Below the pieces are notes generated by a model. The model saw only the letters and a program-made list of their open reading frames with translations. It made no database searches and was not told where the DNA came from. The position numbers were made by a program, and so were the translations under genes. This document shows positions 6,303 through 6,391 of a DNA stretch of 35,242 nucleotides, piece by piece (position 1 is the stretch's first letter; every line of letters begins with the position of its first letter). Source of the stretch: Nanobdellota archaeon (GTDB lineage Archaea; Nanobdellota; Nanobdellia; Pacearchaeales; GW2011-AR1); NCBI GenBank assembly GCA_022561055.1, contig JADFRY010000004.1, forward strand, positions 1 through 35,242, written 5' to 3'.

Positions 6303-6391
6303 GGGATTATCAAACCGAAGCTCAATAACCCCAAATATCTCAACCGAAGTCGAGATAACCCAACTTAAGTCAACCGAAGTCAACTTAAACT
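6303..6391 (-). ncRNA. Candidate structured RNA: three tandem UUCG-capped hairpins
   Basis: Minus-strand stems: 6362-6391 (13 bp), 6336-6357 (9 bp), 6303-6332 (13 bp), each capped by C(UUCG)G; 9 G-U pairs become A-C mismatches on the plus strand; promoter at 6417-6430. Confidence 0.6.

What the first reader, a model, noticed from the sequence alone, without database searches (positions are those of the whole stretch)
6303..6391. Three tandem UUCG-capped hairpins form a minus-strand-specific candidate RNA
Read on the minus strand, 6391-6303 gives three consecutive stems, each closed by C(UUCG)G: 6362-6391 (13 bp), 6336-6357 (9 bp) and 6303-6332 (13 bp). The loops are conserved while the stem sequences differ but stay paired, a covariation-like pattern among the three copies. 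Nine G-U pairs occur in minus-strand RNA and become A-C mismatches on the plus strand, so the structure points to RNA on one strand rather than a DNA palindrome. A BRE/TATA (GAAAGG-TTTATAAA, 6430-6417) places a start site at about 6391-6395, right at the first stem. I recognise no known RNA family.
Basis: partly seen in the sequence, partly recalled or inferred. Interest (0 to 1): 0.82.

Follow-up and report, generated by a model that had tools for sequence, protein, structure and literature searches.

The report
Tandem UUCG-hairpin RNA of Pacearchaeota
A very small archaeon and dozens of its relatives carry a tiny gene that encodes no protein and appears to make a short RNA built almost entirely of two to eight very stable hairpins in a row, a new RNA family whose job is still unknown.

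Summary
Minus strand 6395-6303 folds into three abutting C(UUCG)G hairpins of 17, 9 and 13 bp (z -7.4, against -1.8 for the plus-strand RNA). Shuffled windows never give adjacent UUCG hairpins. The same kind of array occurs in about 74 of 191 genomes (30 genera) of the window's archaeal family, one member of which is named Candidatus Pacearchaeota. It was found with covariance models trained without the window, and the window is the only significant hit in its own genome (E 1e-8). Structure-blind alignments show strong compensatory change: 94% of cells paired, 15-18 pairs with double changes, versus about half paired when partners are slid. Nearly all copies share a TATA-like box about 30 nt upstream of hairpin 1, two to eight hairpins with UUCG loops, 0-3 nt linkers and a U-rich tail. 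Neighbouring genes face every direction. So this is an autonomous small-RNA gene, not a leader or a terminator of a neighbour. Nothing in Rfam 15 matches it, and no paper in the searched library describes it. Transcription is inferred from sequence. The function is unknown; the most likely is a multivalent protein-binding ('sponge' or scaffold) RNA.

The parts
6417..6430 (-). BRE/TATA promoter element GAAAGG-TTTATAAA; predicted start site about 6395
   Evidence: Read directly; the same kind of element sits about 30 nt 5' of HP1 in nearly all relatives; the flanking 6459-6416 matches promoter-like stretches in many related genomes
6285..6395 (-). Predicted autonomous small RNA of about 95-110 nt (three hairpins plus U-rich tail)
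   Evidence: boundaries inferred from promoter and tail
6358..6395 (-). Hairpin 1, 17 bp, UUCG loop, 6 G-U pairs
6336..6357 (-). Hairpin 2, 9 bp, UUCG loop
   Evidence: with HP3 matched by independent model R2 at E 1.4e-8
6303..6332 (-). Hairpin 3 (terminal, terminator-like), 13 bp, UUCG loop
6285..6302 (-). U-rich 3' tail TTTAATAATTTATTTTAA, probable termination region
   Evidence: Read directly; in relatives the 12 nt after the last hairpin are 66% T against 34% background
6270..6277 (-). Separate TATA-like box (TACTTAAA) 29 nt before the FNR-like ATG, so the downstream gene need not share the RNA's transcript
   Evidence: Read directly; inference
5583..6248 (-). Downstream gene: FAD/NAD-binding ferredoxin reductase-like protein, 221 aa
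6460..6876 (-). Upstream gene: YjbQ/UPF0047 family, 138 aa

Best explanation
6395 to about 6285 on the minus strand is a gene for a small structured non-coding RNA, a member of a lineage-restricted family: own BRE/TATA promoter, 5' end at the base of hairpin 1, two to eight abutting hairpins capped by C(UUCG)G, U-rich terminator. Supported here by comparative evidence: the structure, its conservation by compensatory change, the fixed promoter spacing, the U-rich tail and independence from neighbouring genes (about 0.92 likely). Inferred: it works in trans as a multivalent protein-binding RNA. The repeated identical loops on variable stems present several copies of one docking site, as CsrB/RsmZ RNAs do for CsrA/RsmE, either to titrate a regulator or to scaffold an RNP, possibly with an Sm-like protein on the U tail.
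For: Models R1 and R2, trained without the window, find it: R1 E 1.3e-9 in its genome; R2 E 1.4e-8, next hit E 3.2. Covariation on structure-blind MAFFT alignments: 94.4% of cells paired, 18 of 29 pairs with changes on both sides, score 0.591 against 0.319 shuffled and at most 0.197 slid; 94.1%, 15 of 20 pairs, 0.650 against 0.290 and at most 0.191. TATA-like box at -30 (51 matches in one 5-nt bin) and U-rich tail. Neighbour orientations are +/+ 20, -/+ 18, +/- 10, -/- 9, which argues against a leader or a terminator of a neighbour. For multivalency: hairpin number varies 2-8 while loops stay UUCG, arrays grow by repeating the unit (G028), and almost no unpaired sequence is left for base-pairing.
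Against: No transcript data. No partner protein was identified: PC4, adjacent in one genus, is absent from the window's genome and does not co-occur with the RNA. UUCG is intrinsically stabilising, so loop conservation may reflect stability rather than recognition. Loci were found with UUCG-based models, so loop counts are biased. A possible distant relative carries UCCG in its first loop. The family is patchy: about 61% of family genomes gave no hit, many of them incomplete and scored with strict filters.
Confidence: 0.45

Rival explanations
1. Autonomous small RNA in which the hairpins are only armour: UUCG caps give nuclease and thermal stability, and function lies in being an abundant RNP or RNAP-binding body (6S-like) or in the short unpaired ends, with no recognition of the loops.
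For: UUCG is an exceptionally stable RNA tetraloop (established knowledge; cited for the STAXI motif in PMC2864571); stems diverge freely while pairing is kept.
Against: Other stable loops (GNRA, other UNCG) would be expected to substitute more often; inside arrays UUCG outnumbers every other loop by 88 to at most 1 each. Linkers are mostly 0-3 nt, so little unpaired sequence remains.
Confidence: 0.25
2. Cis-acting 5' leader or attenuator of the downstream gene: hairpins form in the leader and the terminal hairpin plus U tract terminates transcription conditionally.
For: In the window the next gene is codirectional. In one genus 3-hairpin copies precede a PC4-like gene, and several other copies precede aIF5B. 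The last hairpin with U tract looks like a terminator.
Against: Nineteen of about 57 copies face a convergent downstream gene. The downstream genes differ (PC4, aIF5B, FNR-like, others). The FNR-like gene has its own TATA-like box 29 nt before its ATG.
Confidence: 0.12
3. Transcription terminator or insulator element: tandem hairpins end transcription from the upstream gene, and the TATA-like box is incidental.
For: Terminal hairpin followed by a T-rich tract.
Against: In 27 of about 57 copies the upstream gene points away. The promoter box has a near-fixed distance to HP1. HP1 and HP2 add nothing a terminator needs.
Confidence: 0.08
4. DNA-level element (palindrome, REP/BIME-like repeat or protein-binding site) rather than RNA.
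For: Inverted repeats; occasional tandem repetition of the unit (G028).
Against: Eleven G-U pairs make the minus-strand RNA far more stable than the plus strand. G-U pairs are frequent among the accepted pair types. No near-identical dispersed copies in the genome.
Confidence: 0.03

Closest known systems
CsrB/CsrC, RsmX/Y/Z protein-sponge sRNAs (bacteria)
   Same: Autonomous small RNAs made of repeated stem-loops with a repeated recognition element and a variable number of copies; [quoted passage not shown]
   Different: Loop element is CUUCGG, not a GGA motif; archaeal; no CsrA-like partner known; no Rfam match
STAXI motif (Weinberg et al. 2010, PMC2864571)
   Same: Tandem structured repeats, usually three, often with UUCG tetraloops
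   Different: STAXI repeats are pseudoknots near genes for DNA-manipulating proteins; no Rfam match to our loci; here simple hairpins, own promoter, archaeal
psaA motif (Weinberg et al. 2010, PMC2864571)
   Same: Three hairpins that often have UNCG tetraloops
   Different: A 5'-UTR element of cyanobacterial psaAB operons; here standalone, in archaea, no Rfam match
Intrinsic (hairpin plus U-tract) terminators
   Same: The last hairpin is followed directly by a U-rich run
   Different: Preceded by further hairpins and by a promoter at fixed distance; independent of upstream gene direction

Membership tests
Any Rfam 15 family | Covariance-model match at the curated gathering score | tested here: not met
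   Window: only a tRNA at 24120-24191; permissive scan of 6240-6470 gives only chance-level matches; 15 relatives' loci give only tRNAs and one SRP-like match elsewhere
STAXI motif | Tandem pseudoknot repeats matching the STAXI model | tested here: not met
   No Rfam match; plain hairpins explain 94% of cells as paired
STAXI motif | Next to SSB, topoisomerase, antirestriction or integrase genes | tested here: not met
   Neighbours are YjbQ and an FNR-like gene in the window; PC4, aIF5B, Dph2 or SerRS in relatives. PC4 is a nucleic-acid-binding protein but is linked mainly in one genus
CsrB/RsmZ-type sponge RNA | Repeated stem-loops presenting one conserved motif, variable copy number, own promoter and terminator | tested here: met
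   2-8 hairpins, UUCG loops, TATA-like box at -30, U-rich tail; this supports 'works like', not membership
CsrB/RsmZ-type sponge RNA | GGA motifs in the loops bound by CsrA/RsmA | tested here: not met
   Loops are UUCG
CsrB/RsmZ-type sponge RNA | Sequesters a regulatory protein | not testable with these tools
   Needs binding experiments
Archaeal H/ACA or C/D box guide RNA | ACA box 3' of a hairpin with a guide pocket, or C (RUGAUGA) and D (CUGA) boxes | tested here: not met
   Reading of the window sequence: tail is UUUAAUAAUUUAUUUU without ACA; no C or D box
5' leader / riboswitch of one gene | Constant position upstream of a codirectional gene of one function | tested here: not met
   Mixed orientations and different neighbours

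The most novel reading that the evidence does not exclude
A new class of archaeal regulatory RNA: hairpin-array RNAs in Pacearchaeota whose repeated CUUCGG loops dock a dedicated, unidentified RNA-binding protein and set its free amount by their number (2-8), an archaeal analogue of the Csr/Rsm sponge principle in ultra-small, possibly host-dependent cells.
Probability: 0.25. Interest if true: 0.82.

Novelty: new variant of a known kind. Interest (0 to 1): 0.64.

Why it matters
In the library searched I found no paper describing a regulatory small RNA specific to Pacearchaeota or other DPANN archaea. This is a compact, strongly covarying RNA family with promoter and terminator, present in about 30 genera, in genomes of only 0.4-1.7 Mb. 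It gives a ready covariance model for annotation and metatranscriptome mining, and a concrete bait for finding its protein partner. If the loops prove to be a docking site, it would extend the protein-sponge principle to archaea.

Tried and rejected
PC4-like protein as the partner: adjacent to the RNA in genus g58, but the window's genome has no PC4 match and presence does not correlate (13 of 74 RNA-positive against 14 of about 119 RNA-negative, Fisher p 0.29; 3 of 58 against 14 of 118 without g58). Leader of aIF5B: the RNA sits upstream of aIF5B only in a minority of genomes, and most loci without it have no substitute hairpins. Mobile cassette with flanking duplications: the window has a 25-nt imperfect repeat of the promoter region downstream of the RNA, but other loci show no excess. 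The FNR-like gene as a syntenic anchor: relatives of it exist but do not mark the RNA. The first class-wide hit outside the family (G253) was first taken for chance; on inspection it has a TATA box, a UCCG hairpin, a UUCG hairpin and a long third hairpin followed by CTTTTATA, so it may be a distant relative.

Full report
Observation. The minus strand of 6400-6295 folds at -40.4 kcal/mol, 7.4 standard deviations better than shuffles, into three hairpins. The plus strand does not, as RNA or DNA. Exact stems are 6395-6358 (17 bp), 6357-6336 (9 bp) and 6332-6303 (13 bp), with 0 and 3 nt between them and 11 G-U pairs. Shuffled windows give 0.28 TTCG hairpins of at least 7 bp on average and never two adjacent, against three here. 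All six frames are broken by stops in the region.

Setting. The window is contig C15 (positions 1-35242) of a 929-kb archaeal draft genome in a family with many genera. An aIF5B protein whose listed contig length (301,763) equals that of a contig of family member G028 (contig C1) is named 'Candidatus Pacearchaeota archaeon', so the group is most likely Pacearchaeota; the window's own name was not shown. Upstream lies a YjbQ/UPF0047 gene, downstream an FAD/NAD-binding ferredoxin reductase-like gene. The downstream ATG (6248) has its own TATA-like box at 6277-6270, so a separate transcript is plausible (inference).

Relatives. A pattern of three CTTCGG found similar arrays in many genomes of the family. 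Twelve of them, not including the window, gave model R1; 21 two-hairpin copies gave model R2. R1 matched 78 of 211 genomes of the order at E up to 0.1, including the window at 1.3e-9. R2 matched 75 of 211 at E up to 0.01, all but one in the window's family, that is about 74 of 191 family genomes and 30 genera; in the window's own genome it has one significant hit, E 1.4e-8, with the next at 3.2. Caveat: R1 places its first hairpin out of register on the window, because the window's HP1 is 17 bp rather than 7; R2 matches HP2 and HP3. Samples of 384 genomes of the class and 382 of the phylum gave only family members plus one weak hit each. One of these two, G253, looks like a possible distant relative with a UCCG first loop; the other was not inspected.

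Covariation. On A2 (12 sequences, aligned by sequence alone) 94.4% of cells pair, 18 of 29 pairs show changes on both sides, and the covariation score is 0.591 against 0.319 shuffled and at most 0.197 when partners are slid. On A4 (21 sequences) the figures are 94.1%, 15 of 20, 0.650 against 0.290 and at most 0.191. On 66 model-fitted sequences 27 of 28 pairs have double changes; that alignment leans to the structure. These are well beyond the controls, so the paired RNA form is under selection.

Gene architecture. In 59 loci with at least two detected hairpins, 51 TATA-like matches fall in the single 5-nt bin 30 nt upstream of HP1 (other bins 1-7), 44 loci have a box at -42 to -22 against 10 in a control interval, and the 12 nt after the last hairpin are 66% T against 34% background. 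Hairpins number three (26 loci), two (24), four (5), six (3) and eight (1). Larger arrays contain repeats of the basic unit (G028). The nearest ORFs of at least 80 codons stand in every orientation: +/+ 20, -/+ 18, +/- 10, -/- 9. Recurrent locations are upstream of a PC4-like gene (mainly genus g58), near dph2 and aIF5B, and near SerRS. Together this points to an autonomous small-RNA gene with its 5' end at HP1 and a U-rich terminator. Transcription itself is inferred.

What it is not. No Rfam 15 family matches the window or 15 relatives' loci. Guide-RNA boxes are absent on reading. A leader, a neighbour's terminator or a DNA palindrome is disfavoured by the orientation mix, the fixed promoter spacing and the G-U asymmetry. 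Full-text searches found no description of such an RNA. The nearest published analogues are the STAXI motif (tandem pseudoknots with frequent UUCG loops) and the psaA motif (three hairpins with UNCG loops); neither matches.

How it probably works. What stays constant is the loop and its immediate stem (ACUUCGGU), while stems drift and the number of hairpins changes. Linkers are too short for antisense pairing. This fits an RNA that displays several copies of one docking site to a protein, as RsmZ does for RsmE (abstract of PMC13287468). I put the gene itself at about 0.92 and the docking mechanism at about 0.45. The main rival is that UUCG only stabilises the RNA. PC4 was tested as a partner and rejected.

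Limits. No expression data. Completeness of many genomes is 60-90%, and strict filters were used in large scans, so absence is not proven. Loop statistics are biased because the models contain UUCG loops; the interior of arrays offers only a partial, less biased view.

Noticed in passing
L392 (upstream of aIF5B in G014, two tandem copies), L375 (G067), L035 about 1440-1600 (G066): A second, different candidate structured RNA: AAGGCGGGAYAATCAGTTNAAGYTTGATCTTCGGATTT..CTGGCTTCGGACGCCTT with a closing stem AAGGCG/CGCCTT and conserved GGGAUAAUCAG; a TATA-like sequence lies upstream in G014. No Rfam match. Not seen in the window.
   Followed up: partly
window 6423-6398 and 6273-6249 (minus strand): A 25-nt imperfect direct repeat (TAAACCGTATAATTCTTCTTTAATT / TAAACCGTATATTTTTCTTCAATT) flanks the RNA, as if the promoter region had been duplicated around it; other loci show no such excess.
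   Followed up: partly
L325 about 1498-1614 (G253, another family of the class): Possible distant relative of the RNA with UCCG and UUCG hairpins, a TATA box and CTTTTATA after a long third hairpin, suggesting UNCG loops in general may be tolerated.
   Followed up: partly
L311 (G033:C68) and L041 (G071): Variant arrays in which UUCG hairpins appear enclosed by an outer stem (TTGTAGGGAA...TTCCCTACA and similar), read from sequence and the fold of L041.
   Followed up: no
L103, L104, L106, L108 (genus g58): A tRNA gene lies roughly 90-250 nt upstream of the RNA in several members of the PC4-linked group.
   Followed up: no
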